The notes under the pieces were generated by a model that made no database searches, was not told where the DNA came from, and saw nothing but the letters and a program-made list of their open reading frames with translations. From assembly GCA_013297655.1 (NCBI GenBank), contig JAAFHV010000069.1, positions 1-36,150 of the forward strand: a stretch of 36,150 bases of DNA, read 5' to 3'. Shown piece after piece: positions 4,795-31,313 of this stretch. This DNA comes from Myxococcales bacterium (GTDB lineage Bacteria > Myxococcota_A > Polyangia > Polyangiales > Polyangiaceae). Numbering within the stretch: the stretch's first letter is position 1; every line of letters begins with the position of its first letter. Position numbers and translations under genes: made by a program.

Positions 4795-5850
4795 TCAGCG
4801 GCAGAAGCCGTCGATGCACACGAGCGGGCTATTGCAAGCGCGGCCCTGGGCGGGATCGCACTCGGAGCCGAGGTTCGAGTCCGAGCCGCACACGGAGTAC
4901 GTGCCGCTCGAGGTCGTCACCGACTTGCACACGTTGAAGCGGTCGCTCGCGCGGCAGGCGTCGGACGCGTCGGCCTCGCAGGCGATGTAGCAACTGTGAC
5001 GGAGGCAGAGGCTGCCTTGCGCGCAAGCGTCGCGTTGGCCGTCGGCGTTGCAGGTGAACACCGGGCGCTGGTCTGGCATGCAGCCCCCGTCGACGCACAC
5101 GAGCCCAGAGGGGCAGGTGTTGCCTGCGCCGCACGGGTTGACGCACCGCTCTTGCACGCAGGTCTTCCCGCCGGTGCAGGTGTTGCCACCTTCGGTGCAA
5201 GGGGTGGGGTTTTGGGTGCAAACGCCCTTGGTGAGATCGCAGCCGAACCCGGTGGGGCAGGCCTTGGTCGCCGAGCACGACGGAGTGCACACGCCCTGCA
5301 CGCACTGCTGACCGCCCGGGCACTGGGTCGCGTCCGAGCACTGGTCGGCCGGGGCGGTGCACCTTCCGGAGAGGCATTTCGCACCGGCTGTAGAGGAACA
5401 GTCGGCGTCCTTGTAACAACCGGGGGCAGTGCCGCCGTCGTTGGGGTTGGTGCCGGGGACGCAGCTCAGCGCGCCATTCGAGAGCTTGCAGACCTGGTTC
5501 GAGGGGCAGCCGAACTGAGCGCAATCGCCAGCGTGGCAGCGTTTGTCGGCGCCGCAGACCTCTCCCGTGCGGCATTCGGCGGCGGTGCTGCACGTGTTGC
5601 CCGTGGTGGGCGGCAAGGTGGTGCCGTTCGGTGTGCAGCGGCTCGAGCCGTCGCAGCGGTAGCCGGAGGGGCACTCGGCGTTGTCGCCGCACTGCCAGTC
5701 GACGCAGCGGTCGTCGAGCGAGTTGTCCGGGCAGAGGAAACAACCGTTTCCGTCGCAGACGCGCGTGTTGTGGGCGTCCGGATAAATGGGGCAACCGGCA
5801 AGGACAGCGGCAAGCGCTCCGAAGACACCGACAAAAAGTGCTCGCTTCAT
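4795..5850 (-). CDS. Cysteine-rich lipoprotein with repeated disulfide modules
   Basis: The 351-residue product starts at the ATG at 5850, with AGGA nine bases upstream. It has a short signal ending LAGC, so Cys20 would be lipidated. I count 49 cysteines including that one. They fall in repeats of the form C-x5-C-x5-C-x4-C with Gly between (for example ECPSGYRC and TCPSGLVCVDGGC), resembling EGF/Dickkopf-like modules seen in myxobacterial secreted proteins. The 48 remaining cysteines could form 24 disulfides, so export to an oxidising compartment is expected. No catalytic motif is visible. It stands alone: own promoter (5901-5929), own terminator (4732-4767). Its substrate or partner cannot be inferred. 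Confidence 0.85.
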   Translation of the reverse strand: MKRALFVGVFGALAAVLAGCPIYPDAHNTRVCDGNGCFLCPDNSLDDRCVDWQCGDNAECPSGYRCDGSSRCTPNGTTLPPTTGNTCSTAAECRTGEVCGADKRCHAGDCAQFGCPSNQVCKLSNGALSCVPGTNPNDGGTAPGCYKDADCSSTAGAKCLSGRCTAPADQCSDATQCPGGQQCVQGVCTPSCSATKACPTGFGCDLTKGVCTQNPTPCTEGGNTCTGGKTCVQERCVNPCGAGNTCPSGLVCVDGGCMPDQRPVFTCNADGQRDACAQGSLCLRHSCYIACEADASDACRASDRFNVCKSVTTSSGTYSVCGSDSNLGSECDPAQGRACNSPLVCIDGFCR

Positions 5851-5900
5851 GGCGTGGTTCCTGGCGCTGGCTCGTCTGGTGAGCCGCGTGCGCCTCCGAG

Positions 5901-5929
5901 ACTTTAGCAACCCCCGTGCCCTCCACCAA
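5901..5929 (-). promoter_or_regulatory. Candidate sigma70-type promoter for the cysteine-rich lipoprotein
   Basis: On the minus strand there is TTGGTG (5929-5924), a 17-base spacer, then TAAAGT (5906-5901). A TGC just before the -10 gives an extended -10 look. Transcription would begin near 5894, leaving a leader of about 44 bases before the ATG at 5850. Motif match only. Confidence 0.45.
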
Positions 5930-6078
5930 GGCGATGAAATGCGCCTGCTGAACGGAAGAGTCCATCCGGGGAGCCCACCACCGTGTCTTTCCGTTCACGC
6001 CCGCTGTGGACGAACCGTCATGCGAGCTAGGGAACGAAGCGCCACGTCTTTGTTCTCACGCCTCGAAACCCTTGGTTA

Positions 6079-6108
6079 TTGCCAACGCGAAGCGGAAAGG
6101 GACATGAT
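6079..6108 (+). promoter_or_regulatory. Candidate promoter for the 6141-20766 gene run
   Basis: TTGCCA at 6079-6084 and CATGAT at 6103-6108 are separated by 18 bases, which places the start point about 25 bases before the ATG at 6141. A short GGCC-TTTC-GGCC hairpin (6120-6131) lies between promoter and start codon, and no Shine-Dalgarno sequence is visible there. The rest of the 290-base divergent region holds nothing else I can assign. Confidence 0.35.
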
Positions 6109-6140
6109 ACCTTCTGTGCGGCCTTTCGGCCGGTCCTGCC

Positions 6141-8528
6141 ATGCACGTCCAGTGTGAGAGCTGCGCTACCCAATACGAGTTCGACGACGCGCTCGTAAGT
6201 GGGCGCGGCACGACCGTGAAATGCTCCAATTGCGGCTACCAATTCAAGGTCCGCAAGGCTGGTGGGGAAGACCAATGGCTGGTCACCACCGCCGATGGCT
6301 CCACGTTCGTCTATGGCTCCCTCCGTGAGCTCCAGCGCGCGATCATGTCGCGCCAAATCCACGCGAGCGATCTGCTCGAACGCGGCGGCGTCGCCCCGCG
6401 GCCGATCGGCCAAATCGCAGAGCTTGCGCCCTTCTTCGACGAGAAACGCCGACCCACCAGCGCGCCACCGGGCGGGGCGGCCCCCAACACCGTACGGTCC
6501 GCTCCCCCCGAGCCCGCCGCTCCCGTTCCCGAGCCCGTCGCTATCCACGCAGGCCACCCGGGTCGGCTCGATCCCGATCGAACGGCCGCGACCCCCGCGC
6601 GCCTCCTCGCGGAGCACCTCGCGGCGTCGCGCACCCCGGTCCCGCCGCCCCCCGAAATTCTCCCCGTCGTGACGCCGATCGCGTCCGCTCCTGCCGTCGT
6701 TGGCGCAGCTTCGGCCGTGTCCGGTCTGGCGAGCACGTTCGGCGCGGCTCCCCCCGTCCGCTCACGAATCGCCACCGAGCCCGACTTCCTCACGAGCGTC
6801 CCTTCGCTCCGCTCGCTCCACGATCTCGACGACGAGAACATCCCGACCCGCCTCGCCGATGGGCCGGCCCGCGCGCCGAGCAACCCGGACGACGGGCCGA
6901 CGAACGCGAACGGCTTCTCGATCGCTCCGGAGGCGCGAGGCCTCCACGAGGCCAAAGTGGAGCTCGCCCCCGGCATCGACGAGCCGTCGCGCGACGTGCC
7001 GCTTCGCGATCGCACCGAGCGCCTATCCCGCGATTCGTTCCGCCCGCCGCAACCTCCGGCGCCTCAGCCGCCGGCCGCCCACGAGGTCTACACCCCGGTC
7101 GAGGTCACGTCTCCGCTCCCTCCGCATGTGCAGCATGTGCAGCGACGCACGGATCCAGCGGACGATTTTCCCGACTCGGGGCTCCCCTCCGCGCCTCGCC
7201 CGCGCCGTGGGGTCGGGGGAGTGGTCGTCGCCGCCGTCGTGCTCCTCGGGCTCGGCGGTATGGGCGCGTATTACTTGAAGAATCGCCTCGCCGACAAGCC
7301 GATCACGGCGCTCGATCCGAAGGCAGAGAGCTTCCTCGCGGCAGGTGAAAAGGCTCTCGGCGACGGCGATCTCGATCGCGCCAAAGAGAACTTCGACAAA
7401 GCGAGCGTGCTCGCCGAGAAGAACCCGCGCCTGCTCCTCGACTACGCGCGCCTCGGGACTGCCCGCGCGGATGTCTCTTGGGTCCGCCAGCTCGTCACCC
7501 CCGAGACCGAAGCGGGGCCCGTCCGAGCGAAGACGATCGAGCTCGCCAAGTCCGCGGTCGACGCCGCCGACGCCGCGCTCGCCGTCTCGCCGGACGATCC
7601 CTCCGTCACCCGCGCGAAGATCGACGGGCTGCGCGCCCAGGGCCAGCTCGACAAAGCGCGCGCGCTCGTGCCCAAGGTCGTCGCGCAAGGCAACCAGTCG
7701 GAGTCGGCTTACGTGCTCGCCACCCTCGACATGGCGGGGGCCGACCCGGTGTGGAGCACCGTCCTCCAACGGCTTCGGCTCGCCGCTTCGGCAGAGGGCG
7801 CCTCCGGAAGGGCGCGCGCAGCCCTCGTCGTCGCGCTCGTGCGCTCGGGCGACAGCGACGGCGCACGCGGCGAGCTCACGCGCCTCGAGGGGGGCTCCGC
7901 GTCGCATCCGCTGCTCGGCCCGCTCAAGCAGTACGTCGACCGCGCGAAGAGCAACGCCCCCGCGCCCGCCGCGACCGACGACGCTGGCGCGCCGGTCGAC
8001 GTGAGCACGCTAAAGGCGCTCAACGGCGGCAACGCGACCGACCCGCGCGTCCTGGTGTCCCAAGCTGAAATCGCAAGAAGTCACGGCAAGTTGGACGTGG
8101 CCAAGCGGCTCTACGAGCTCGCGCTGCAGAAGAACCCGACCGACTCGGAGGCGCTCACCGGCCTCGCCCAAGTGGCCCACGCGCAACGCGACAACGCGAC
8201 GGCCAAAGACGCGTACCGACGCGCGCTCGCCCAAAACTCGAGCTACGTGCCCGCGCTCGTGGGGCTCGCCGACGTCGAGTGGGAGTCGGGTGACCGCGCC
8301 GGCGCTCAGAAAAGCTACAAAGACATCGTCGATAGGTTCCCCGAGAGCGCGTACCCGATGAGGGTGAAGCTCCGCGCGGAAGGGGGGGGCTCCGCGCCTG
8401 CACCCCCAGCGACACCTTCGAGCACCGCGACGCCGCCACCGGCGCCGAGCGCGACCGAGCCAGCGCCTACGCCCACGCCCACGCAGGCCCCTGCGCCCAC
8501 GCCGAAGCCTACCGAGGAAAACCCATGA
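6141..8528 (+). CDS. Zinc ribbon-GYF-TM-TPR membrane protein
   Basis: The 795-residue protein begins with an MJ0042-type zinc ribbon (Cys5, Cys8, Cys28, Cys31). A GYF_2-like domain follows at about residues 45-96 (WLVTTADGSTFVYGSL onward). A long Pro/Ala-rich cytosolic linker leads to a single membrane helix at about residues 357-377. Residues about 395-750 contain TPR-like helices (for example AKRLYELALQKNPTDSEAL), and the tail from about 755 is Pro/Thr/Ala rich. The likely topology is N-in with the TPRs periplasmic. Zinc ribbon plus GYF before one TM is also the cytosolic layout of GltJ/AgmX in Myxococcus gliding, but the TonB-like region of that protein is absent here. The stop overlaps the sppA start (ATGA), which implies translational coupling. 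Confidence 0.88.
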   Translation: MHVQCESCATQYEFDDALVSGRGTTVKCSNCGYQFKVRKAGGEDQWLVTTADGSTFVYGSLRELQRAIMSRQIHASDLLERGGVAPRPIGQIAELAPFFDEKRRPTSAPPGGAAPNTVRSAPPEPAAPVPEPVAIHAGHPGRLDPDRTAATPARLLAEHLAASRTPVPPPPEILPVVTPIASAPAVVGAASAVSGLASTFGAAPPVRSRIATEPDFLTSVPSLRSLHDLDDENIPTRLADGPARAPSNPDDGPTNANGFSIAPEARGLHEAKVELAPGIDEPSRDVPLRDRTERLSRDSFRPPQPPAPQPPAAHEVYTPVEVTSPLPPHVQHVQRRTDPADDFPDSGLPSAPRPRRGVGGVVVAAVVLLGLGGMGAYYLKNRLADKPITALDPKAESFLAAGEKALGDGDLDRAKENFDKASVLAEKNPRLLLDYARLGTARADVSWVRQLVTPETEAGPVRAKTIELAKSAVDAADAALAVSPDDPSVTRAKIDGLRAQGQLDKARALVPKVVAQGNQSESAYVLATLDMAGADPVWSTVLQRLRLAASAEGASGRARAALVVALVRSGDSDGARGELTRLEGGSASHPLLGPLKQYVDRAKSNAPAPAATDDAGAPVDVSTLKALNGGNATDPRVLVSQAEIARSHGKLDVAKRLYELALQKNPTDSEALTGLAQVAHAQRDNATAKDAYRRALAQNSSYVPALVGLADVEWESGDRAGAQKSYKDIVDRFPESAYPMRVKLRAEGGGSAPAPPATPSSTATPPPAPSATEPAPTPTPTQAPAPTPKPTEENP

Positions 8529-10372
8529 GTGATCGATCGCCCCGACTCGGTCGGTCGCTCGCGCGCGTCGCCGCGATGCTCGGATTGTTCGCCGGGCTCT
8601 CCGGCGTCGCGGGGTGCGACGGCCGACCTCGGGAGAGCACGAAGACCGACGCCCCCGCGCCGAAGGCCGGTCCGCAGGTAGCCGTGCTCGACCTCTCTGC
8701 AGGCCTCCCGGAGCAGGAAGAAGCGGGGTTCCTGGGCCTCTCCGCGCCGAAGAAGAAGACGTTCTGGGACTTCCTGAACGCAACGGAAGCGATCGCGAAG
8801 GACCCCCATGTGAAGGGGGTGTTCATACGTTTCGGAGCTGCGACGATCCCCGCCGCGCATGCCGAAGAGGCCGCCGACGCGCTGCTCGTGATTCGCAAGA
8901 AGGGGATCCCGGTTCACTGCCACGCCGAAGGCCTCGGCAACACGACGATGATCGTCGCGGCCCAGGCGTGCACCAAGATCGTCATCGCGCCCGCCGGCGA
9001 CGTCGACACGGTCGGCCTCGCGGCGCAGGTGGTGTACCTGCGGAAGCTTCTCGTCGAGGAGCTGAAGCTCTCCGTCGACATCCTTCAGGTCGGCAAGTTC
9101 AAGGGCGCCGAAGAGCCGCTCACCCGCGACGGGCCGAGCGACGAAGCGCGCGCGTCGCTCGAGGGCGTGCTCGCCGATCTCCGCCAGAGCTGGCGTGAAG
9201 CGGTCCGGTCCGGGCGCCCCAAAGAGGGTATCGCCGACGCGATCGAGGACGGGCCCTATTCACCCAAAGCGGCGCTCGGTCGCGGGTTGATCGACGAGGT
9301 CGGCTACTCGGACGACGCGCTCAAGGCGCTCGAGAAGCTGGTCAACGTCGAGCGCCACCGCGCGCGCTTCGGTGGCGGAGCGAGCGCCGACGGCGACGAC
9401 GACGAGGCGATCGGAGAGCTCGTCCGTGCGCTCGCGGGCGACGGTCCCGGTGACGGGCCGATCGCTCTCGTGCGGGCCACCGGCAGCATCTCGATGGGCG
9501 GCGGCGGCGGACCGTTCGGAGGCCGCGATGGCATCACCGCGAAGGGCCTCTCGCGCGAGCTCGCCGAGGTCGAGAAGCGCGACGACATCAAGGCCCTCGT
9601 GCTCCGGATCGACTCGCCTGGTGGGAGCGCGCTCGCGAGCGATCTGCTCTGGCACGACCTCATGCGGATTCGCGCCAAAAAGCCGATCGTCGTGAGCGTG
9701 GGCGAGATGGCGGCGAGCGGCGGTTATTACCTCGCTTCCACCGGGAACCTCATTTTCGCCGACCCGATGAGCATCGTCGGTTCCATCGGCGTCGTCGGCG
9801 GCAAAGTCGGAATCGGCGCCGCTCTCGAGCGCTTCGGTGTCCACGCGGAGACGTTCCCGGCAGCGAAAGACAAGCCAGGCGCGGCGTCTCGTGCGGCGTA
9901 CCTCTCGCTCCTTTCGTCGTGGGACGACCCCACGAAGGTGCGCGTCCTCGAGAGCATGACCGCGATCTACGAGCTGTTCCTGGCGCGCGTCGCCGAAGGC
10001 CGAAAGACCACGCCGGACAAGATCGCTCCGAACGCGGAAGGGCGTATTTTCAGCGGCCGCGAGGGAAAGCGCCTCGGTCTCGTCGACGAGATCGGTGGCC
10101 TGCGCGAGGCCGTCGCGAAGGCGCGCGAGCTCGCGAAGCTTCCCACCGACGCGCGGGTCGCCGTCGTCGGAAATAGCCGCCCCGCGTTCCTCGACAAGCT
10201 CGAGGGTGGTGGGAACGAGGAACGCGTGCTCTCGCGTGCGGTCGGACTCGATCCGGTCAAGCTGGTCGAGAAGACGCTCCCCGAGGTGGCTCCGTTCATG
10301 ACGAGTATGCTCCCTCTCGCCGAGCAGGAGCGGGTCGTGCTCGCCACGCCGTTCGCGATTTGGGTCCGCTGA
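8525..10372 (+). CDS. sppA: Signal peptide peptidase SppA, 67K type, predicted lipoprotein
   Basis: This is a membrane-associated serine protease of the S49 family, which degrades leftover signal peptides and may cut other envelope proteins. The 615-residue length fits the double-domain (67K) class. The N-terminal domain supplies the catalytic lysine, probably Lys193 in FKGAEEP. The C-terminal domain supplies the nucleophile Ser398 in MAASGGYY. Instead of a plain membrane anchor, the N-terminus reads as a lipoprotein signal ending VAGC, so Cys31 would be lipidated. AGGA about seven bases before the ATG and the 4-base ATGA overlap with the preceding gene support the start. Being locked into this operon suggests a dedicated role with its neighbours, which is inference. 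Confidence 0.9.
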   Translation: MSDRSPRLGRSLARVAAMLGLFAGLSGVAGCDGRPRESTKTDAPAPKAGPQVAVLDLSAGLPEQEEAGFLGLSAPKKKTFWDFLNATEAIAKDPHVKGVFIRFGAATIPAAHAEEAADALLVIRKKGIPVHCHAEGLGNTTMIVAAQACTKIVIAPAGDVDTVGLAAQVVYLRKLLVEELKLSVDILQVGKFKGAEEPLTRDGPSDEARASLEGVLADLRQSWREAVRSGRPKEGIADAIEDGPYSPKAALGRGLIDEVGYSDDALKALEKLVNVERHRARFGGGASADGDDDEAIGELVRALAGDGPGDGPIALVRATGSISMGGGGGPFGGRDGITAKGLSRELAEVEKRDDIKALVLRIDSPGGSALASDLLWHDLMRIRAKKPIVVSVGEMAASGGYYLASTGNLIFADPMSIVGSIGVVGGKVGIGAALERFGVHAETFPAAKDKPGAASRAAYLSLLSSWDDPTKVRVLESMTAIYELFLARVAEGRKTTPDKIAPNAEGRIFSGREGKRLGLVDEIGGLREAVAKARELAKLPTDARVAVVGNSRPAFLDKLEGGGNEERVLSRAVGLDPVKLVEKTLPEVAPFMTSMLPLAEQERVVLATPFAIWVR

Positions 10373-10384
10373 GCAGGGGGTAGG

Positions 10385-13300
10385 ATGACGACCGACCGAA
10401 CCGCCGTACCGATCGTCGCGACGGGCAGCGTTCCCCCTCCGACGTCCCTCGGAGATGGCCTCGCGCGGAGGTTCGTGGGCACCGCCCCGAAGCTCGCGCG
10501 ACGCGTGGGGCGCGTCGCCGAGGAGGCCACCCAAGTCACGCGCATGAACGCCGCGATCGCCGATGGCGACACCGCGGGCGAGCGCGCGGCATGCCTCGAG
10601 CTCGCGAAGCTCCTCGAGACGCGCGCGATAGGCCTGGGGAGCGCCGCCGAGCTCTATGCACGCGCGGCGGCGATTTCACCGAGCGCGGAGGTGCTTCGTA
10701 AGCTCGCAGCGCTCGAAGAGAAGCTCGGGCGCCCCGAGCGCGCCGCCGACGCGCTTCGCCAGGTGATCGAGCTCGATCCGCAGGTGGGCGGAAGGGTACG
10801 CCTCGGCTGGCTTCTGCTCCGCGCCGGCGACTACCCGGCCGCGAGCGCCGCGTTCGCGCGCGCCGCCTCCGAGACGCAGGAGCCGCTCGCGATCGAGCTC
10901 CGCGGCGCCCTCGCGTTCACCGGGACCGGCCACGTCTCGCGCGAGGAAGGGGCCGGCTCGTACTTGGATGCCTCGGCGCGCCGCGCGGGCGCCGATCAGG
11001 GCGATGCGGAGCTCGACGATCTCGCACGCGCTTTCGCCCTGTCGCCGTCGATCGAGGTCGGCGAGCGCCTCGCCCGCGCGCTCACGCGCAGGACCAAGCC
11101 GCTGCTCGCCGACGCGTTCCTCGAGGGCTTCGTGCTCGCGGCCGCGCCTTCACCAGAGCGGTCGGAGGCCCTCGCGGCGCTCCGGTCCTCCCGTCTCGCA
11201 CGTGGGGACGTGTGGGGCGCGCTCCTCCTTGCTTTTTCGTCCTCCCGCGAGCTTCGCGAGACGGACGGCTTCGACGACCTGCTCCTCCGCGCCGGGCTCC
11301 CGGAGATTCTCTGCGAGCACCTCGCGCTCCGTGGGGTCGGCGCGAGCCCGGACGAGCGCGTCCGGTTGTCGACCGAGCGGATGCGCATCTTGGCCGGCTC
11401 GCTCTCGGATCCGGAGGGCGCGCTCGCCGCGGCGGCGGAGGTGCTCACCGTGGCTCCGCAAGACGCGGAGGCCCTTAGCCGGCTTCGATCGCACGCGAGC
11501 GATGGTGTGGTGAGCGCGCGTGGCGTCGCGTTGCTCGTCCACAAGCTCGCCTCGGACGCGAGCGCGTCGAGCCTAGCGGAAGAGGTCGCGCGGCTCGGTG
11601 AGCTCACCGACAACCCCGCGCTCCGCGTCGTCGCGCTGCGCGCGGCCCTGCGCACGAGCGACGAACCGAAGCTCCGCGCTCAGCTCGGTGTCGCCGAGGC
11701 ACGTTGCGAAGAGCGCCTCGCCCCGCCGAACAAAGAGCCCTCGAGCGAGTGGCGGCGCGCGCGCTTGATCGCGCTCCTCACGCTCGACGACCGGCGCGAC
11801 GAGCACGCCGCCGCGACCGCAGAGCTCGAGGGACACGAAGCTTACGCGGTCGAGGCTTGGTCGTTCGCCGTGGAGCGCGCGCTCGCATCGGGCGACACGA
11901 AGCGCGCGATCACGATCGCGACTTCGGCGGTGGCCCGCGCGAAGACGGCCGCCGACGGCGATCGCGCCAAGCTCTTGCTCGCACGCGCGGAGCTCGCGTC
12001 CGGCGCGCCTTCTCGTGCGCTCTCGGCGTTGGTCGGCGAGGTCGGCTGCGCCCCGGCCCACGCTCCGCTCGCGCTCTTGCTCGCCCTCGATCTCGACGAC
12101 ACGCTCGCGCTCGCGCGCGCCGCGGAGGCGATGGGAAAGGTGGTCTCCGGAAAGTGCCTCGCGACCTTCCGACGCATCTCGTGCCGGGCCTACGCGGGCG
12201 CCGGCGACTCGGCTTCGGCGCGCAGGATCGCGTCCGATCTGCGCGACGCGGACCCTTCCGATCTGCTCACCGCGGCGGTGGTCGCCGAGGTGCACCTCAA
12301 GAAGCGCGTCGACCCGTCGGCGGCGCCGGTCGCCTTCGCGTCGCTCGAGGCCGCCAATTCGCTCCTGTGGCCGGACGCGAGGCGGGTCGAGGCGCTCGCG
12401 TCGCTCGCGGCGGAGGTCGGCGACGTGTCCGCGGCGCTCTCCTATGGCCAGCGCCTCATCGGCTTGCGGCCAGCCGATCCGGCCCCCCTCGCGACGTTTC
12501 TCGATCGCCTCACGGGCTGCGGCGACGCGACGCGCATCGCCGAGTCGCTCGGCTGGATCCTGTCGCTCCCGTATCCGGCGGCGCTGCTCGCGGACGTGCT
12601 CGTGACGGGCTTGGCAGCGCTCGGCTCCGATCCCGAGCGGCGAATGATGGTCGCGCGTCGTGCCTTCGACGTGCTCGGGCCCACCCACGAGTCGCTCCTT
12701 CGTGTGCTCATCGACGTTGGTAAGCGTGCGAATGATTTCGCATTTTCCGCTCAAGTGCTGGAGCGCGGGCTCTCGTGCGGAGTTGGCCGCGGCGAAGGAA
12801 GCACCCCCGGCGCGGGGTACTTGGAGCTCGCAGATCTCTACGCGCGCGCGCTCGATAGCGACGGGGAAGTAAGGGCGCTCGTCTCCGCGCTCCGCGATGG
12901 GGCCGAGATCGAGGGGCTCGACGAGCGGCTCGGGCGGTTCGAGAGCGCCTCGCTCGGGGGCGACGCCGAGCTGGCGTGCCTCGACGCGCTATCCGAGCGT
13001 GCGGCGGGGAAGGGCGCAGCCGATGTCTCGCTCGCGCTGCGCCGGCTCGGCGCGGCGCTGTGGGACATGGCCGGCGACCGGCCCGGTGCGCTCACGTCAT
13101 GGGTCGAGGCCGCGCGTCGGGCGCCGTTCCGCGGCCAGACCACCCTGCGCCGCGATCTCGTCGCGTTCGCGGGTCGCGAGGAGGCGCTCGAGTGCCTCGT
13201 CGCCCTCGCCGAGCACGAGCCAGATGCCTCGCGCGCGGGCAGCTTGTTGGCAGAAGCGGCGCGGGTCGCGATCGCGCTCGGCGACGAGTCGCGAACGTTC

Positions 13301-16300
13301 GAGCTCGCGTCGCGCGCGCTCAGGAAGAACCCGGCTCACACGGACGCTCTCACCAGCGCCGAGGCCGGCGCCCGCACCGACGAGCGAAACGAGCCCCTTT
13401 CCCAGCTCTACGCCGAGGTCGCCGCGCGCGCGCTCGGCCGCTTCGGCAAGCGCGCCGCGCACTACCGGGCGGCGCGCTTCTTCGAGTCTCGCGGCGCGTA
13501 TACGCTCGCGGTAGAGCACGCGACCTCGGCGTTCCTCTCCGTCCCGTCGGAGGGATCCGCGCTCCAGCTCCTCGCGCGGGCGGGGGAGGCGGCGGGGGAT
13601 CCCGCGGCCGTCTTCGACGCCGTCGACAGGCTCGCGGGCGCGACGAAGAGCGGAGCGCAGCGATCCGCGTGGCTCGTGCGCGCCTCTGAGCTCGGGGATC
13701 TTTCGACCGGCCTCGCCGAGCGGACCGATGCCCTCCTGCGGGCGCTCGTGCTGGTGCCCGATGCGCGCACCCTCGAACGTCTCGCGAGCGCGTTCGAGCG
13801 CCAAGTCGCGCACACCCCCGCTGACGCCGAGGTCCTCGTTCTGCGGCTCACGCGCGCCTCTCGCGCGGTGCTCCCGAAATGCGAGGGGCCCGAGGGCGCG
13901 AGGGTGGCGGTTCGGATCGCCGATCTCGCGGTGAAGCTGGCGAAGGACCTCGTGCTCTCGTGGGACGCGCTCGAGCGCGCGTTCCTCTGCGACGGCGACA
14001 TCGACGAGTACAAGAACCTCATCGCGCTCGTGCCGCGGCTGTGCGAGGCCGATGGCGCACGGGCCGCGTTCGGTCGCGCGGTCACGATCTCCGAAAGGCC
14101 GTATTCGAGCCTCGGATCCGCCGCGTTCGGCCTCCTCGGCAGCCTCGCGGCCCGGCTCGGCGAGGGTCCGCTCTCGCGCAAGCTGCTCGTCTCGTCGGTG
14201 TCGCGCGATGCCGACGACTCCCTCTTCGTGGTCCTCGCCGACGAGGCGCTCGTCTCGTTTCCGGACGAAGCCGATCAAAAGCAGTTCGACCGGTACGTGA
14301 CCCGCGAGCGCATCGTCGAGGCCGTCGTCGCGGTCGTCGAAGCGTCGGTCCCGTCCGATGCCGTCCAGTCGCTCAAACGGATCGTGCGCGCGAAGCATGT
14401 TGGTGGACCGGACGTACCGGTCGCGCTCCAACAGCGCCTAGCGGAGCTCGAAGGCTCGTTCGGCGAGGAGCCAGAGGCTCTCTCTCGGCGGTTGGAAGCT
14501 GCCGATGTCGCTGGGGATCTCGCGATCGTCGGCGACACGCTCGAGAAGCTCGCGGCCTCGACCCGCGCGCCGCTCGAGATGCGTGTGCCGGCGCTCCTTC
14601 GCCTCGCGCGCGACCTCGAGGACTCCGACGCCGCCCGCGCGGAAGAGTACCTACGGAAGGCGGCCGAGCTCGCGCCCGGCAGCGACGACGTCGACGCGGC
14701 GATGGAAGATCACCTGAACCGTAAGGGGGCGTTCGAAGATCTCGCCGCCCACCTCGGCGCGAAGGTGACGCGGCTCGCCCAGATTCCGGCGCGCAGCGAG
14801 GCCTTGCGGGTCCTTCGTCTTCGGCGCGCAGCCCTCCTCGAGCAACGCCTCGGGAAGGTCGCCGAAGCACGCGCCGAGCTCGAAGCGCTCCTCGAGGCGC
14901 ACCCTTCGAGCGAGAGCGCCCTCCGATACCTCGCCGATCTCGCGGAGCGCGGCGGCGATCGGGCAACCACAGTCACCCTCCTCGGTCGCCTCGCTGCCGC
15001 GGTCCCGGACACGCGGGACGAGGTCGAGGTTCGTGTCGCGCGCATTCGTTTCGAGGAGGGCCGCCACGAAGAGGCTCGCGCCCTCGTGACGAGCGTGCTC
15101 TCGCGCGGGGAGCCCCTCGAGGCCGTGCGCCTCCGCGTCGACATGGCTCGAAAAGCTGGGGATCCGCGGGATCTCGGCGACGCCCTCGCGCACCTCGCGC
15201 GCGCGGGCGCGGAAGACGCCGAGGTGAGGAGCGAGATCCTCGTCGAGGCGGCGCAGGCCGCTGCGCGCGCGGGGGACGTCGACGTGTCGCTGAGGAGGGC
15301 TCAAGAAGCCGCCCGCGTCGCGCCGCAGGTCGCTTCGGTCCAGCTCTTCGCCCGCGGTCTCGAGTATCGCACACGGGGCGCGGGGAACGCCGACGAGGCT
15401 CGCGGGGCGCTCGCGTCGCTCTCGCAGGTGCGCGCGCATCTCATGCCCGCCGACGTCGCGCTCCGTGCGTTTCTCATGGCCGAGGCGTCGCGTGTGCTCG
15501 CGGGGGGCGGTGCGGGCCTAGAGCTCCTCCTCGAGACCCGCGCCGAGCTCGGCCCGCACGCGCTCCTCGCCCTCGGCATGGCAGAGCGCCTCGCCGCGCA
15601 AGGCCGTCACGAAGACGCGCTCGTCGCGTTCGACGAGGCGATCCAAGGCCCGCTCCTCGGGATGCGTAGGGTCGCCGAGGTGCAGCTCTTCGCGGCCGCG
15701 TCCGCGGAAAAAATAGGCGATCTGTCGCTCGCGCTTCGTTACGCGGAGGCGGCGCTCCAAGAGCAGGAGCATCGGCTCGCCGCCCTCGAGCGCGTGCGGA
15801 GGCTCGCGTTCGCGTTCGGCGACGTCCGCAAGCAGCGAAGCGCGCTCCGCCAGCTCGTCGCCCTTCAACAGGGCGACTTGCGGATCGAGGCGATGAAAGA
15901 TCTCGCCGGCTCGTTGCTCGCGTCGAGCGAGACCGCCGATCGCGACGAGGGCCGGAGCTTGCTCGAGACCGCCTTGCGCGAGACGCCGCGTGGGCGGGCG
16001 GTAGGCGACGAGATTCGCGCATGGCTCGAGCGACTCGACGCCGAAGCCCTCGCCGCGAAGAACGCGCCGCCGCAAGCGCCCCCGCCGCCCAAGGTCGACG
16101 AGGTCGCGGCGCCGCCGACGGAGATCGTGCCTTCGGCGAGCGATCCGCAGCCCGCCGCGGCCGAGGCGGCTCCCGACGCGCTCGCGATCGCCACCACCCC
16201 CGCGGCGGTCGCGCGCCGCGATCTCGCGGAAATGTTCGGAACCACGATGGTTTCCCCGGGGCAGGGCCGGACGACGGAGCCGGCGGGGGCGCTCCCACCT

Positions 16301-17851
16301 CCGAAAGTCGAAGAGTCTCCCGAGAGCGTGCGTGAGGTCCTCTCGGTCGACGACATCGAAGAGTCGATCGCGCTCGCTTCGCCGGCGAAGGCGCCGCCGC
16401 TCCCGTCGCTCGCGGCCACCCCGTCCAAGGACCCGTTCCCAGCATTCTCGTCCGGCCCAGACGCGTTCACGACCAAAGATCCGTTCCCGTCATCGAGCCC
16501 GCCGTCCGCGCTCCCGTCGTCGATCGCCGCCAGCTCGTTCGGGCCTGCCTCGATCGCGGGACGGGACACCATCGTCCGTGATCCGGGCTCGGTGCGCATC
16601 GCTCCGAGCGTGATCGTGACGCTCCCCTCGATTTTGCCCCACGTGCTGGAGGGCGTCGCGAAAGGTACGCTTCCGGACGGCCGCACCGGCGCGCGGCTCG
16701 CCGCGGCTCGCGACGAGGTCGCCGCGGGGCGCATCGACGAGGCCGAGGCGCTGCTCGCCGAGGCGATGGCGGGCGGCTCGCTGGAGGCGGCGGACCTGCT
16801 CGCGAACCTCCTCGAGCCGCAGCGCGAGCGCCTCGCCCTTTACCAGCGTGCACGGCGGCTCGCGGCTGAGCTCGCACCCGGCGACGTCACACGCCTCGCC
16901 GCGCTCCGTGAGGCTGCGCGCGCGGACAACAACCAGGTCTACGGTCGCGCCCTCGATCACCTCCTCGCGTGCCTCAAAGGCGATCGTGACGTGCCCGAGC
17001 CCCCGCCTCTTCACCAGCAGACGGAGCAGCCCGGCATGCTCGCGCTCCTGACGCGCTCGGGACGCGAGGGTCTCGGCGAGGTGTTCGGCCTCGTGTGGGA
17101 GTTCGCGGCGACCACGTTCGTACGAAACGCACCCGCGTCGATGAGCGGGCTCGAACGTGTCACCGCCGGCGACGGATCGCCTGCCGGTCGGCTCCTCGAT
17201 TCGACGGCGCGCCTCCTTGGCCTCGCGAGCGCGCGTCTCTCGCGTCGTCGCGTTCCGGGGGCCACCGCGCTCTCTGCGCACGTCGCGCTCGGGCAGCCCC
17301 CATCCGGCATTCTCCACGGCACCGGCGACGAGGATCCGCCGGAGCTCGCGTTCGTTCTGGGCGAGGCGCTCGGGGCGTCGCTCTCGTACCACGCGCTCCT
17401 GCTCGGTCAGCCCGAGGGGGACGCGAAGGTGCTCTACCGCGCGCTCCTCGGCGCGTTCGGCCCCCCCGAGGCGGCGAGGGATCTCGACCGCGCCACGGCA
17501 AGCCTCGGGGAGATCCTTTGGCAAACGCTCCCCGCCAAGGCGCAGCGTAGGCTCTCGGATCTGCTCTCCGGCGCCACCCTCGCGTCGTTCGACGACGCGC
17601 TCGCGCGGGCGCGCCAATCGGCGATGCGGGTCGGTTTGTTCGTCTCGGGAGACTTCCGCCAAGCGACGCGCGCGGTCCTCTTGGCCGCAGGGCAGGACCC
17701 GCGAATGGCGGAGGCCTCGGGCGCGATCATGGACCTCGTGAGCGAGCTGCCCGCGCTCGCCGATCTCTACCGTCTCGCCCTCAGGCCCGAGCTCGCCGAC
17801 GCGCGATTCGTGCTCGGCCGCGCGGGCCGAGCGGGGAAAAAGGAAGGATGA
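10385..17851 (+). CDS. Giant TPR-repeat protein (2488 residues)
   Basis: Almost the whole length is a helical solenoid of degenerate TPR units rich in Ala, Leu, Arg and Glu (for example SAAELYARAAAISPSAEVLRK). There is no signal peptide or membrane helix, so it should be cytosolic. Residues about 1880-2060 form a disordered Pro/Ser/Thr segment with KDPFP twice and possible phospho-sites such as RDTIV. A compact domain of about 400 residues follows. Its late motif MRVGLFVSGD recalls the region of M48-like peptidase domains after the active site, but no HExxH is present; that resemblance is weak. AGGGGGTAGG precedes the ATG. The stop overlaps the next start (ATGA). I do not recognise a named homologue. 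A scaffold role is likely. Confidence 0.9.
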   Translation: MTTDRTAVPIVATGSVPPPTSLGDGLARRFVGTAPKLARRVGRVAEEATQVTRMNAAIADGDTAGERAACLELAKLLETRAIGLGSAAELYARAAAISPSAEVLRKLAALEEKLGRPERAADALRQVIELDPQVGGRVRLGWLLLRAGDYPAASAAFARAASETQEPLAIELRGALAFTGTGHVSREEGAGSYLDASARRAGADQGDAELDDLARAFALSPSIEVGERLARALTRRTKPLLADAFLEGFVLAAAPSPERSEALAALRSSRLARGDVWGALLLAFSSSRELRETDGFDDLLLRAGLPEILCEHLALRGVGASPDERVRLSTERMRILAGSLSDPEGALAAAAEVLTVAPQDAEALSRLRSHASDGVVSARGVALLVHKLASDASASSLAEEVARLGELTDNPALRVVALRAALRTSDEPKLRAQLGVAEARCEERLAPPNKEPSSEWRRARLIALLTLDDRRDEHAAATAELEGHEAYAVEAWSFAVERALASGDTKRAITIATSAVARAKTAADGDRAKLLLARAELASGAPSRALSALVGEVGCAPAHAPLALLLALDLDDTLALARAAEAMGKVVSGKCLATFRRISCRAYAGAGDSASARRIASDLRDADPSDLLTAAVVAEVHLKKRVDPSAAPVAFASLEAANSLLWPDARRVEALASLAAEVGDVSAALSYGQRLIGLRPADPAPLATFLDRLTGCGDATRIAESLGWILSLPYPAALLADVLVTGLAALGSDPERRMMVARRAFDVLGPTHESLLRVLIDVGKRANDFAFSAQVLERGLSCGVGRGEGSTPGAGYLELADLYARALDSDGEVRALVSALRDGAEIEGLDERLGRFESASLGGDAELACLDALSERAAGKGAADVSLALRRLGAALWDMAGDRPGALTSWVEAARRAPFRGQTTLRRDLVAFAGREEALECLVALAEHEPDASRAGSLLAEAARVAIALGDESRTFELASRALRKNPAHTDALTSAEAGARTDERNEPLSQLYAEVAARALGRFGKRAAHYRAARFFESRGAYTLAVEHATSAFLSVPSEGSALQLLARAGEAAGDPAAVFDAVDRLAGATKSGAQRSAWLVRASELGDLSTGLAERTDALLRALVLVPDARTLERLASAFERQVAHTPADAEVLVLRLTRASRAVLPKCEGPEGARVAVRIADLAVKLAKDLVLSWDALERAFLCDGDIDEYKNLIALVPRLCEADGARAAFGRAVTISERPYSSLGSAAFGLLGSLAARLGEGPLSRKLLVSSVSRDADDSLFVVLADEALVSFPDEADQKQFDRYVTRERIVEAVVAVVEASVPSDAVQSLKRIVRAKHVGGPDVPVALQQRLAELEGSFGEEPEALSRRLEAADVAGDLAIVGDTLEKLAASTRAPLEMRVPALLRLARDLEDSDAARAEEYLRKAAELAPGSDDVDAAMEDHLNRKGAFEDLAAHLGAKVTRLAQIPARSEALRVLRLRRAALLEQRLGKVAEARAELEALLEAHPSSESALRYLADLAERGGDRATTVTLLGRLAAAVPDTRDEVEVRVARIRFEEGRHEEARALVTSVLSRGEPLEAVRLRVDMARKAGDPRDLGDALAHLARAGAEDAEVRSEILVEAAQAAARAGDVDVSLRRAQEAARVAPQVASVQLFARGLEYRTRGAGNADEARGALASLSQVRAHLMPADVALRAFLMAEASRVLAGGGAGLELLLETRAELGPHALLALGMAERLAAQGRHEDALVAFDEAIQGPLLGMRRVAEVQLFAAASAEKIGDLSLALRYAEAALQEQEHRLAALERVRRLAFAFGDVRKQRSALRQLVALQQGDLRIEAMKDLAGSLLASSETADRDEGRSLLETALRETPRGRAVGDEIRAWLERLDAEALAAKNAPPQAPPPPKVDEVAAPPTEIVPSASDPQPAAAEAAPDALAIATTPAAVARRDLAEMFGTTMVSPGQGRTTEPAGALPPPKVEESPESVREVLSVDDIEESIALASPAKAPPLPSLAATPSKDPFPAFSSGPDAFTTKDPFPSSSPPSALPSSIAASSFGPASIAGRDTIVRDPGSVRIAPSVIVTLPSILPHVLEGVAKGTLPDGRTGARLAAARDEVAAGRIDEAEALLAEAMAGGSLEAADLLANLLEPQRERLALYQRARRLAAELAPGDVTRLAALREAARADNNQVYGRALDHLLACLKGDRDVPEPPPLHQQTEQPGMLALLTRSGREGLGEVFGLVWEFAATTFVRNAPASMSGLERVTAGDGSPAGRLLDSTARLLGLASARLSRRRVPGATALSAHVALGQPPSGILHGTGDEDPPELAFVLGEALGASLSYHALLLGQPEGDAKVLYRALLGAFGPPEAARDLDRATASLGEILWQTLPAKAQRRLSDLLSGATLASFDDALARARQSAMRVGLFVSGDFRQATRAVLLAAGQDPRMAEASGAIMDLVSELPALADLYRLALRPELADARFVLGRAGRAGKKEG

Positions 17852-18441
17852 CGAGGCCGCGCGCACGACTCGAACGCGCCCTCCGCTGGGTCACCGTGAG
17901 CGCCGGTGCGATCGCGGTGCTCGCCTTTTCTGCCTGCATCATCGCGGAGCCTGTCTCCGAGATCACGCAGCTCCCGTCGTTCCGGCCGATCATCGTGCGA
18001 AGCTCGGCGGTGCCGGTCTCGAACGCGATCCTAGGGGCGTTCCCTGCGAAGTTCGTCGTCCCGGTGCAGCTCGTCGATCCGAGCGTGACGTTCGGCTGGC
18101 GGCTCTACATCGACTACAACCCGCTCACGGGGGAGGGGCTCGACAGCTACGCAGATAGCCTGCCGGGCGCGGGCGATGCGGGAATCCGCGTGCTCGAAAT
18201 TCAGACTACACCTCTAGCGGATCTCACTCGCTGCCACGTCGTCGAGGTCCTCGTGGCGCAGGAGTTCCAAGACAGAGGAGAGTTCCGCGGCAAAAACGCA
18301 CACACTCCCGTCGACCCTCCCGGTGGCGACAGCATCACGTGGATCTACAGCCCGAGCGGCGACCTGACCGGGTGCCCGGTTCCCGACGCGGGAGTCGCGG
18401 TGCCTCGCGACGCCGGCCTCGATGGCGAAGGCGGTTCGTGA
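17848..18441 (+). CDS. Hypothetical lipoprotein (197 residues)
   Basis: A basic n-region and hydrophobic stretch end in LAFSAC, so Cys30 would be lipidated. The mature part has segments suggestive of a small beta-sandwich (VTFGWRLYIDYNPLTGEG; TRCHVVEVLVA) and an Asp/Ala/Gly-rich C-terminus (PDAGVAVPRDAGLDG). I do not recognise the family. AAGGAAGG abuts the ATG. The gene overlaps its neighbours by four bases on both sides (ATGA upstream, GTGA downstream), so it is translationally coupled to the giant TPR gene and to the next lipoprotein. Both lipoproteins probably sit in the same envelope layer. Confidence 0.82.
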   Translation: MTRPRARLERALRWVTVSAGAIAVLAFSACIIAEPVSEITQLPSFRPIIVRSSAVPVSNAILGAFPAKFVVPVQLVDPSVTFGWRLYIDYNPLTGEGLDSYADSLPGAGDAGIRVLEIQTTPLADLTRCHVVEVLVAQEFQDRGEFRGKNAHTPVDPPGGDSITWIYSPSGDLTGCPVPDAGVAVPRDAGLDGEGGS

Positions 18442-20177
18442 GGAGGCTCTTGGTGGTCGCGGCGAGCGGCATCACGATGTTCGCGGCCTGCCAACCGATC
18501 GAGCCTCGTCCGCTTCCGGAGGGTCCTCAAAACTCTTGCGAGGTCAGCGCGTGCGACAGGTACGAGCAATCGTCTGCTGCGCGGCCGGCATGCAGCGGGA
18601 GCGGTCGTTGCGAGGTTTCCGGCAAACCCGAGTACCCGTTCGTGCTCGCGATCTCGGTCCCCGACAGCTCGTTTTTCGCTTCCGGACGCACGTTCCTCCT
18701 CCGTAGCCAAGACCTGCGCGGGAACAGCACGACGTGCGTCGCCCCATCTTGCTTTCTGCTCCCGCCTCTCGTGGAGGTCGGGGGCGAGTATCGCGTAACC
18801 GGGGCGACGCCCGCGCTCGTGGGGTATCCGCTTTCGGGCACCGACGTCCTGCCCGCACGTGTCGCGTACTACGCCGCGGTCCAGCTCGACGACGGTACGC
18901 TTCGGGATGCGTCCGAGGTCGGCCTTCCGTCGTCCCCGCTGTTCGCGGACACGATCCCGGGACGGTTTCTCGCCTTCGTTCCATCGGGCCCCTACCTCCG
19001 CGAGGCGATGCCGACGCGTCCGTTCGACATCGCGTTCCCTCCCGTCGTCGGGCCGGTCAGCGTGACGGTGGAAGGCGTCCGCGTTGGGATCTTTCCATTT
19101 TTCACCGATACCTTCGCGGTCGGCGCTCCTCCGAGCAGCCTCGACGACCCTAGCGGGAGCGCACACACCGCCTTCGTCAAACGCTCCGCCGGACTGGATG
19201 GGTTCTACACGTACCTTCGGGATCGCAAGACCGAGCGGCGGCTGTCGTCGCTGCGTCCGCTCGCGGGCACCGACGCTGCGGTCCGCCTCGACACCGTCGC
19301 GCAGAACGATCCCTCCGGAGCCCTCCGCGACGGCATCGACATCGTCGTCATGCCGGACGCGCGTTGGGTCGGCATGCCCACGCTGGTGGACCGCATCCTC
19401 GCCGGCGCAGGCTTCCGCCTCGAGTACCCGGATTTGCCCTCGCCCGTCTCGGTCACCGGTCAGGTCGACGCGGAGGGCGCGGCGGCCGCGCAGGTGACGT
19501 TCGTCAGCACGCGCATCGACGTGCGGACGCCGACCCCGTCGGACCTCGTCTACCGGACGACCGTTCGCACCGACGCAGAGGGGCGTTTCGCGACCGTCCT
19601 GCCGCCCGGCAACTACGACGCGTTCGTGGAGCCGGACGATCGCGCGTTCGCGAAAACCCGCGTCAGCACCGGCATCTCCGCGACCGAGCGCGTAGTCGTC
19701 CTCCGCGCTCCGCGGAAGGGCGTCGTGTCGGGAAAAGTACGTATCGCCGACGGCCGCGCGCTTTCCAACGCCGACGTGTTGTGGGGGCCGTCGGTCTCGC
19801 GGCGATCGCTCTCGACGCCTTGGCTCTCGCCGCGCCCGGGCCGCGCACGCACGGACGCCGAGGGCCGCTATTCGGTCGCGCTCGACGAGGGCGACTACGA
19901 CGTCACCGTCGTGCCGCAGGCGGGCAGTGGCTTCCCGCGTTTCGTCGCTCCACGAAGACCCGTCGGGCCGAACGACGCGACCCTCGACGATCTCGTGATC
20001 GTCGCGCCGACGCGGGTCGCGTTCACGATGTTGTCGCCGGGGGTCCAGGCGATCGGGCGCGCGGTGGTCCGAGCCTTCGCGTTCGTGCCGTCGCTGTCCG
20101 GCTTCGTCGAGGTCGGGCAGGCGCTGAGCGATACGAGCGGGCAGTTCGAGCTATTGCTGGGACCTTTGCCAAAATGA
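18438..20177 (+). CDS. Lipoprotein with carboxypeptidase-regulatory-like repeats
   Basis: The start is the GTG at 18438, which forms a GTGA overlap with the previous stop; AAGG lies seven bases upstream. From there the 579-residue product opens with a lipoprotein signal ending MFAAC, followed by a short Cys-containing stretch. The C-terminal half holds two clear carboxypeptidase-regulatory-like beta-sandwich repeats: about residues 335-425 (VTGQVDAEG ... TDAEGRFATVLPPGNYDAFVEP) and about 430-510 (VSGKVRIADG ... TDAEGRYSVALDEGDYDVTV). A third, weaker copy reaches the C-terminus. Such domains are usually structural or glycan/protein-binding parts of surface proteins. The N-terminal half is not recognised. 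An in-frame extension to 18339 lies inside the preceding gene and was rejected. Confidence 0.85.
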   Translation: MRRLLVVAASGITMFAACQPIEPRPLPEGPQNSCEVSACDRYEQSSAARPACSGSGRCEVSGKPEYPFVLAISVPDSSFFASGRTFLLRSQDLRGNSTTCVAPSCFLLPPLVEVGGEYRVTGATPALVGYPLSGTDVLPARVAYYAAVQLDDGTLRDASEVGLPSSPLFADTIPGRFLAFVPSGPYLREAMPTRPFDIAFPPVVGPVSVTVEGVRVGIFPFFTDTFAVGAPPSSLDDPSGSAHTAFVKRSAGLDGFYTYLRDRKTERRLSSLRPLAGTDAAVRLDTVAQNDPSGALRDGIDIVVMPDARWVGMPTLVDRILAGAGFRLEYPDLPSPVSVTGQVDAEGAAAAQVTFVSTRIDVRTPTPSDLVYRTTVRTDAEGRFATVLPPGNYDAFVEPDDRAFAKTRVSTGISATERVVVLRAPRKGVVSGKVRIADGRALSNADVLWGPSVSRRSLSTPWLSPRPGRARTDAEGRYSVALDEGDYDVTVVPQAGSGFPRFVAPRRPVGPNDATLDDLVIVAPTRVAFTMLSPGVQAIGRAVVRAFAFVPSLSGFVEVGQALSDTSGQFELLLGPLPK

Positions 20178-20196
20178 ACGATATGAAGGATCGCAG

Positions 20197-20766
20197 ATGA
20201 CGCTTCGAGAAGACAAGGTGCCGTTCCTCGCGCGGCTGGTTCGTCGCGATCCGTCGTCGTCCGATTCGAAGAAGAACGACGTGTCGATCCTCGCGCTCGC
20301 GGCGGCGTCGTTCGGGTCGAAGACCGATCCGGACAGCACGGTGCCGACCGGCTTCGATCCCGCCGCGGTCGCGCTCTTCGAGGGGCTCGTGGAGTGCGCG
20401 TTTCTCGTCGCGCACGCCGATGGCGTCTTCGACGAGCTCGAGCGCGAAGCGTTCGAGCGGCTCGTGTTGGTCGCGTGTGATGGAACCGTGTCGCAAGGCC
20501 AAATCGCCTCCCTCGTGACCGACCTCGCGGCGCAGCGCGAAGAAGACGGGGAGGACGCGCGCATCACCGCCGCCGCGCGCGCGTTCAAGCGGCCATCGCA
20601 TGCCGAAGAGGCCCTTCGTGTCGCGGTCGTGATGGCGCGCGCCTCCGACGACGTGAGCGCCGTCGAGCGAAAAACGATCGAGAAGATCGCCGATGCGTGC
20701 GGGCTCGCGCCGGCTGCGGTGGACGAAGCGTTTCGCGCGGTAGACGCCGAGATCGCTCGCGTGTAA
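20197..20766 (+). CDS. TerB-like protein
   Basis: A 189-residue soluble protein with two helical halves that match the TerB/DjlA-N fold: VECAFLVAHADGVFDELEREAFERL and, later, VMARASDDVSAVERKTIEKIADACGL. Each carries the acidic loop (HADG...E, SDD...E) seen in TerB proteins, which can bind metal. The N-terminal 45 residues are polar and poorly conserved. GAAGGA precedes the ATG by seven bases. It is the last gene of the run and ends just before a hairpin facing a convergent gene. TerB domains occur in tellurite resistance and in stress or envelope systems. No other ter gene is here, so tellurite resistance is not implied. Confidence 0.83.
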   Translation: MTLREDKVPFLARLVRRDPSSSDSKKNDVSILALAAASFGSKTDPDSTVPTGFDPAAVALFEGLVECAFLVAHADGVFDELEREAFERLVLVACDGTVSQGQIASLVTDLAAQREEDGEDARITAAARAFKRPSHAEEALRVAVVMARASDDVSAVERKTIEKIADACGLAPAAVDEAFRAVDAEIARV

Positions 20767-20774
20767 CGGCGGCT

Positions 20775-20797
20775 GCCGCGTCATCGTGGGACGCGGC
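20775..20797. terminator. Hairpin between convergent genes, likely bidirectional terminator
   Basis: GCCGCGTC (20775-20782) pairs perfectly with GACGCGGC (20790-20797) around a 7-base loop, and outer wobble pairs can extend it. It fills the 40-base gap between the TerB-like gene (plus) and the TPR gene (minus). There is no T-run on either strand, so its strength is uncertain. Confidence 0.45.
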
Positions 20798-20806
20798 GGT
20801 GGCTTG

Positions 20807-27820: not shown

Positions 27821-27867
27821 CCCTGTAGGCGCTTCATTCCGGGCCGGCGGCTGCTATGAGGGGCCTC

Positions 27868-29943: not shown

Positions 29944-29978
29944 CGCATCGGCACCCGGCGCCGGCAAAAACGTGGTAG

Positions 29979-31313
<1,335 letters not shown>

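What the first reader, a model, noticed from the sequence alone, without database searches (positions are those of the whole stretch)
6141..20766. Six-gene coupled run joining a zinc ribbon-GYF-TM-TPR protein, an SppA lipoprotein, a giant TPR protein, two lipoproteins and a TerB-like protein
Three of the five junctions are 4-base start/stop overlaps (ATGA at 8525 and 17848, GTGA at 18438), and the other two gaps are 12 and 19 bases. Such tight coupling over 14.6 kb implies products made together. The set covers cytosol (giant TPR, TerB), inner membrane (zinc ribbon-GYF-TPR) and lipidated envelope proteins (SppA, two lipoproteins), which is what a trans-envelope machine or an envelope quality-control system would need. 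I know of no named system with this exact set.
Basis: partly seen in the sequence, partly recalled or inferred. Interest (0 to 1): 0.65.

Follow-up and report, generated by a model that had tools for sequence, protein, structure and literature searches.

The report
Conserved SppA protease envelope operon
A run of myxobacterial genes for a membrane adaptor, a peptide-cutting protease, a giant scaffold protein and lipoproteins keeps its core together across much of a bacterial order, so it is probably a real but undescribed envelope system, although the last of the six genes looks like a passenger.

Summary
The set is real but its borders differ. In 48 genomes of the window's family (window included) A-B is adjacent in 41, C-D in 33, D-E in 34, B-C in 24, but E-F (TerB) in only 9. 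An in-frame start overlapping the stop by 4 bases recurs at A-B (39 of 58 genomes) and D-E (30 of 37), but not at B-C (1 of 33) or E-F (1 of 10). A-B-C reaches other families of the order; A-C occurs without B. Where TerB is linked, the flank to its right is linked too, so it is probably a passenger. Best reading: a zinc-ribbon/TM/periplasmic-TPR adaptor (A) made with an intact lipoprotein-type SppA (B), linked to a cytosolic giant TPR scaffold (C) and a lipoprotein pair (D, E); it would work like TPR-adaptor/protease pairs (LbcA-CtpA), with a GltJ-like cytosolic head. Binding, substrates and transcription are untested. The paper searches made found no description of the set.

The parts
4795..5850 (-).
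   Evidence: beside A and divergent in 28 of 48 family genomes, also in f6 (2 of 4) and f8 (3 of 5).
6079..6108 (+). only sigma-70-like promoter match in 5700-21000, just before A
   Evidence: 1 found, 0.3 expected; consensus match only, no proof of a promoter.
6141..8528 (+). A: zinc ribbon (6141-6251), GYF_2-like segment (about 6270-6440), Pro-rich linker, TM (about 7206-7280), TPR (about 8046-8381), 795 aa
   Evidence: (zinc ribbon matches 7zok, AgmX/GltJ, E 9.2e-6).
8525..10372 (+). B: SppA (S49) with lipobox Cys31, catalytic Lys193 (9101-9103) and Ser398 (9716-9718)
   Evidence: E. coli protease 4, 3bez, E 1.6e-46; Ser in 64 of 64, Lys in 63 of 64 aligned rows.
10385..17851 (+). C: giant TPR protein, 2488 aa, no signal peptide seen
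16652..17848 (+). conserved C-terminal region of C: TPR helices plus a mixed alpha/beta part (about 17009-17821)
   Evidence: pLDDT 86.4, pTM 0.86.
17848..18441 (+). D: 197-aa lipoprotein of unknown family (FSAC lipobox)
   Evidence: (no Pfam hit).
18438..20177 (+). E: 579-aa lipoprotein, string of beta domains, CarboxypepD_reg above cut-off
   Evidence: pLDDT 84.2; pilin and adhesin chains among the best matches, low TM-scores.
20197..20766 (+). F: TerB-like protein, 189 aa; probably a passenger of the right flank
20807..23170 (-). G: convergent 787-aa TPR protein, conserved beside F in the same subclade

Best explanation
An envelope proteolysis operon. A is an inner-membrane adaptor: a cytosolic zinc-ribbon/GYF-like head, a long Pro-rich linker, one TM helix and a periplasmic TPR arm. 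It is made together with B, a membrane-anchored SppA with an intact catalytic dyad, which the TPR arm recruits, activates or restrains and supplies with substrates, much as TPR adaptors do for other periplasmic proteases. The cytosolic giant TPR protein C docks on the head of A and couples the protease to the state of the cytosol. D and E (coupled to each other) and divergent Z are lipoproteins that act at the envelope as partners or clients. F (TerB) and G are neighbours, not parts. SHOWN: gene order, recurring overlaps, Ser/Lys dyad, zinc-ribbon cysteines, lipobox-like motifs, all-beta model of E. INFERRED: topology of A (from the hydrophobic segment and cytosolic zinc-ribbon precedent), A-B and A-C contact, regulation, and the roles of C, D, E and Z.
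For: A-B adjacent in 41 of 48 family genomes, and seen in f2, f3, f4, f5, f7, f8 and f10 and in G211, of another order of the class. An in-frame start overlapping the stop by 4 bases in 39 of 58 (A-B) and 30 of 37 (D-E), against 1 of 33 (B-C) and 1 of 10 (E-F) as internal controls. A-C adjacent without B in f5 (2 of 6) and f6 (3 of 4); B-C adjacent in f3, f8, f9, f10 and f11; D-E directly behind A-B where C is missing (G012, G041). So the modules re-associate with one another. B keeps Ser398 in 64 of 64 and Lys193 in 63 of 64 rows; A keeps the four zinc-ribbon Cys in 47, 47, 48 and 47 of 51 rows, the rest gaps but for one Ser. B. subtilis SppA is in an operon with a membrane partner that binds and inhibits it (PMC7568657, passages). 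LbcA-CtpA (8sxf) is one of 50 entries listed for C's TPR part; that only recalls the analogy.
Against: C lies away from A-B in at least 15 of 48 family genomes, so C need not be next to B; two small genomes lack C between B and D. No binding, expression or phenotype data. Adjacency can reflect shared regulation only. No structure of A or of an A-B pair was computed. Charges around the TM do not decide the topology (3 K+R before, 3 after).
Confidence: 0.42

Rival explanations
1. A GltJ/GltI-type trans-envelope machine. A and C are a paralogous branch of the pair GltJ (zinc ribbon, TM) and GltI (giant TPR) of the Myxococcus gliding complex; a small G protein such as MglA would bind the zinc-ribbon head, and SppA plus the lipoproteins form the envelope part.
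For: A's head matches the solved AgmX/GltJ zinc ribbon 7zok, E 9.2e-6. A-C occur side by side without B in f5 and f6. GltI is a 4132-aa TPR protein not listed with a signal peptide, next to GltJ in cluster G1, and both probably arose in the ancestor of Myxococcales (PMC3169522, passages). In G078 a 3919-aa TPR protein matching C's C-terminal profile (E 7.8e-25) is followed by a zinc-ribbon/GYF_2 protein that scores 126.9 bits with the GltJ model, below its cut-off. MglA effectors include GltJ (PMC12288465, passages).
Against: A scores 23.5 bits against a GltJ cut-off of 450; 0 of 282 phylum genomes passed that cut-off, so no full GltJ was at hand, and GltI's own C-terminus could not be read. 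Motor genes (AglRQS) were not searched. In two f26 genomes the giant TPR gene is followed by an RsmI-like gene, named by eye.
Confidence: 0.2
2. Housekeeping co-expression: SppA clears spent signal peptides, the other genes are envelope genes that share a promoter, and there is no complex.
For: 78 of 78 genomes have S49 homologues. C-D-E can live elsewhere. Proteins of one operon need not touch.
Against: The 4-base overlap recurs at A-B and D-E but not at B-C or E-F; A-C adjacency without B, and the Z-A divergent pair kept in f6 without B. In B. subtilis sppA and yteJ deletions gave no secretion defect (PMC7568657, passages), so a plain secretion role is not general.
Confidence: 0.25
3. The reader's full six-gene system with TerB (F) as a working part.
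For: F follows E by 19 bases. E-F adjacent in 9 of 48 family genomes.
Against: Of 40 TerB loci fetched, 30 show no other gene of the block (some are short contigs); E-F overlap in 1 of 10; in G004 genes B-E are followed by G without F (L053); helicase and enolase beyond G are syntenic in 9 and 7 loci, two of which are the same contig, so linkage there may be background synteny.
Confidence: 0.08

Closest known systems
SppA-SppI (YteJ) of Bacillus subtilis
   Same: SppA encoded in an operon with a membrane protein, conserved in bacilli; there the partner binds and inhibits SppA (PMC7568657, passages).
   Different: A is a zinc-ribbon/TM/TPR protein; the Pfam scan shows no other domain above cut-off (that SppI is of the RDD type is recalled). 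The myxobacterial set adds a giant TPR protein and lipoproteins.
TPR adaptor-protease pairs LbcA-CtpA and NlpI-Prc (recalled; LbcA-CtpA is listed as 8sxf)
   Same: Membrane-anchored TPR protein beside a periplasmic serine protease; expected division into adaptor and enzyme.
   Different: Protease is S49 (SppA), not S41; the adaptor also has a cytosolic head; no interaction shown.
GltJ (AgmX)-GltI (AgmK) of the Myxococcus gliding complex
   Same: Zinc-ribbon membrane protein paired with a giant TPR protein without signal peptide, as neighbours.
   Different: A ends in TPR, is below the GltJ model cut-off, and sits with SppA and lipoproteins, not with GltD-H.
ZitP of Caulobacter
   Same: Bitopic protein with cytosolic N-terminal zinc ribbon (PMC5182063, passages).
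   Different: C-terminal DUF3426, not TPR; acts in pilus biogenesis and swarming.

Membership tests
SppA, peptidase family S49 | S49 domain above curated cut-off | tested here: met
   PF01343 191.2 against 24.9; TIGR00706 178.9 against 155.45.
SppA, peptidase family S49 | Ser nucleophile and Lys base in the two halves | tested here: met
   Ser398 64 of 64, Lys193 63 of 64 rows; aligned with 3bez. The roles of the two residues are recalled from E. coli SppA.
SppA 67K equivalog | TIGR00705 cut-off | tested here: not met
   246.8 against 311.45.
GltJ (AgmX) | NF033761 curated cut-off | tested here: not met
   23.5 against 450.
GltJ (AgmX) | N-terminal zinc ribbon | tested here: met
   7zok match E 9.2e-6.
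GltJ (AgmX) | GYF domain | tested here: inconclusive
   No hit in the window's segment; GYF_2 E 4.2e-4, below cut-off, in orthologue L090.
GltI (AgmK) | homology of C's C-terminal domain to GltI | not testable with these tools
   GltI sequence not at hand; matches in open frames of about 3900-4200 aa exist in the phylum.
TPR adaptor-protease pair (LbcA-CtpA type) | adaptor and protease encoded together (recalled as typical, not strict) | tested here: met
   A-B in 41 of 48.
TPR adaptor-protease pair (LbcA-CtpA type) | S41 (CtpA/Prc) protease | tested here: not met
   B is S49.
TPR adaptor-protease pair (LbcA-CtpA type) | direct binding and activation | not testable with these tools
   Needs biochemistry.
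TerB | PF05099 cut-off | tested here: met
   30.7 against 24.4.
M48 peptidase-like fold for C's C-terminus | sequence or profile match to M48 | tested here: inconclusive
   No M48 match among 26 members; hhalign with four own-genome M48 proteins aligned only a few end residues, as with shuffles.

The most novel reading that the evidence does not exclude
A motorless, protease-armed branch of the GltI/GltJ family: a zinc-ribbon membrane adaptor and giant TPR scaffold, controlled by a polarity G protein, place an SppA protease and surface lipoproteins at chosen sites of the envelope, so that myxobacteria steer proteolysis along the cell as they steer gliding complexes.
Probability: 0.12. Interest if true: 0.8.

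Novelty: new variant of a known kind. Interest (0 to 1): 0.5.

Why it matters
SppA is widespread, but its partners are known in few bacteria (recalled, apart from SppI). A gene set kept across much of an order that ties SppA to a dedicated membrane adaptor, a 2500-residue-class scaffold and lipoproteins gives a concrete handle on how envelope proteolysis is directed in myxobacteria, and tests whether the zinc-ribbon/giant-TPR pairing known from gliding is a general adaptor module.

Tried and rejected
M48-like pseudo-peptidase in C's C-terminus: suggested by the strand-helix order of the model and by eye; the Pfam scan of 26 members and hhalign against four own-genome M48 proteins with five shuffled controls gave no support; dropped as unproven. 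E's fold matches have TM-scores of 0.07 to 0.16 by query length and show only the domain type. A as GltJ: below cut-off. Paper searches returned nothing; one listed two papers off the point; 54, 55, 90, 107 and 108 led to the papers cited. Only openly licensed papers were searchable. Rows dropped: tallies use hits over 60 bits (120 for A) and gaps up to 700 bases, so G010 (B-C gap 923) counts as not adjacent; the overlap count uses hits over 60 bits and one locus per genome; the B alignment kept rows over 400 bits, the A alignment rows over 300. Many loci are cut by contig ends; outside the family only some genomes of f3, f5, f6, f8 and f10 were fetched, and not at every gene, so misses there are not absences. 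G241 and G211 are not among the 78 relatives.

Full report
WHAT IS THERE. The six ORFs and their junctions are as described. I call them A (zinc ribbon, TM, TPR), B (SppA), C (giant TPR), D and E (lipoproteins), F (TerB); G is the convergent TPR gene at 20807-23170 and Z the divergent Cys-rich lipoprotein gene at 4795-5850. The window lies in a 9.9-Mb genome of 546 contigs. The named relatives found by C's C-terminus are assemblies titled Labilithrix, Polyangiaceae, Myxococcales and one Sorangium cellulosum (11 loci).

THE PROTEINS. A: zinc ribbon and TPR above cut-off; strongest hydrophobic segment at about residues 356-380; its first 100 residues are strongly conserved. The zinc ribbon matches the solved AgmX/GltJ domain 7zok at E 9.2e-6. 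The GYF label holds only weakly. B: S49 peptidase of the two-halved SppA type, aligned with E. coli protease 4 over residues 77-559, with Ser398 in 64 of 64 rows, Lys193 in 63 of 64 and a Cys at the lipobox position in 58 of 64. C: 2488 aa, TPR, no signal peptide seen; its C-terminal region was modelled with mean pLDDT 86.4. D: no Pfam family, conserved in relatives. E: CarboxypepD_reg above cut-off and an all-beta model of mean pLDDT 84.2, with pilins and adhesins among the best fold matches at low TM-scores. F: TerB above cut-off. Z: Cys-rich with a lipobox, no Pfam family above cut-off.

CONSERVATION. I searched F, B and C's C-terminus in the same 78 relatives (matches in 57, 78 and 59), fetched loci and found orthologues with iterated profiles. 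In 48 genomes of the family, window included: A-B adjacent in 41, C-D in 33, D-E in 34, B-C in 24, Z divergent beside A in 28, E-F in 9, B-D with C missing in 2. Of the 7 without A-B, G008 is cut by a contig end, G004 lacks A at its B locus, in G043 A and B lie on different contigs, and in G017, G022, G028 and G035 no B locus was fetched. In at least 15 genomes (G002, G003, G006, G007, G009, G013, G021, G026, G027, G032, G038, G039, G042, G043, G045) C was found away from B. Outside the family: A-B and B-C in f3 (2 and 2 of 5), f8 (4 and 2 of 5) and f10 (3 and 2 of 4); A-B in f2, f4, f7 (1 of 1 each) and f5 (2 of 6); B-C in f9 and f11 (1 of 1 each); A-C without B in f5 (2 of 6) and f6 (3 of 4); none in f12 (0 of 2). 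A-B also occurs in G211, of another order of the class. In the other loci read beyond the order A-like proteins have neither B nor C beside them (the short TPR genes scored as A beside giant TPR genes in L112 and L127 are TPR lipoproteins without a zinc ribbon; the one in L119 was not read).

COUPLING. In one locus per genome I asked whether an in-frame start overlaps the previous stop by 4 bases: A-B 39 of 58, D-E 30 of 37, C-D 11 of 36, A-C 2 of 8, B-C 1 of 33, E-F 1 of 10. The likely meaning is that A and B, and D and E, are kept translationally coupled; B-C and E-F act as internal controls. The only promoter-like match in 5700-21000 lies just before A.

THE BORDER AT F. Of 40 loci fetched around TerB orthologues, 8 carry other block genes in line, 2 carry E or G only, 30 carry none (some are short contigs). 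Where F is linked, G is too, and beyond G a helicase and an enolase (named by eye) in 9 and 7 loci (L136 and L157 are the same contig). In G004 G follows E without F (L053). F is therefore best read as part of the right-hand neighbourhood of one subclade, not of the system.

MECHANISM. The most economical reading is an adaptor-protease operon: A's periplasmic TPR arm serves B, A's cytosolic head serves C, and D, E and Z are envelope partners or clients. Only the gene-level facts are shown; contacts and regulation are inference. Precedents: SppI binds and inhibits SppA from the same operon in B. subtilis (PMC7568657, passages); TPR adaptors LbcA and NlpI serve CtpA and Prc (recalled). The chief rival by content is a paralogue of GltJ-GltI: PMC3169522 (passages) lists GltI as a 4132-aa TPR protein beside GltJ, and G078 has a giant TPR protein matching C's C-terminal profile next to a zinc-ribbon/GYF_2 protein. 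GltI itself could not be read, and A fails the GltJ cut-off.

NOVELTY. Searches for SppA with Myxococcus and TPR, with myxobacteria and signal peptide peptidase, and with tetratricopeptide, operon and lipoprotein gave no paper that, by its listing, describes the set; only openly licensed papers were searched. The parts are of known kinds; the combination and its conservation appear undescribed. I rate it a new variant of a known kind, interest 0.5.

Noticed in passing
window 4795-5850 (-): Cys-rich lipoprotein gene divergent from A, conserved beside A even in two f6 genomes where A is followed by C and SppA is not there.
   Followed up: yes
L043 (G012) and L059 (G041): Two of the smallest family genomes (3.5 Mb) have A-B-D-E with the giant TPR gene missing between B and D.
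   Followed up: partly
L110, L152, L153, L154, L155: A directly followed by C, with no SppA between them (families f5, f6).
   Followed up: partly
L127 3242-17132: TPR lipoprotein, 3919-aa TPR protein matching C's C-terminal profile, then a zinc-ribbon/GYF_2 protein: a GltI-GltJ-like arrangement outside the class.
   Followed up: partly
L112 and L130: Giant TPR proteins of 4148 and 4216 aa beside an RsmI-like gene (named by eye) in family f26; in L112 a TPR lipoprotein precedes it.
   Followed up: no
window 27856-31313 (+): DinG-like helicase and enolase genes (named by eye) syntenic with G in the subclade; the window has about 4.7 kb between G and the helicase, where the relatives read have little.
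   Followed up: no
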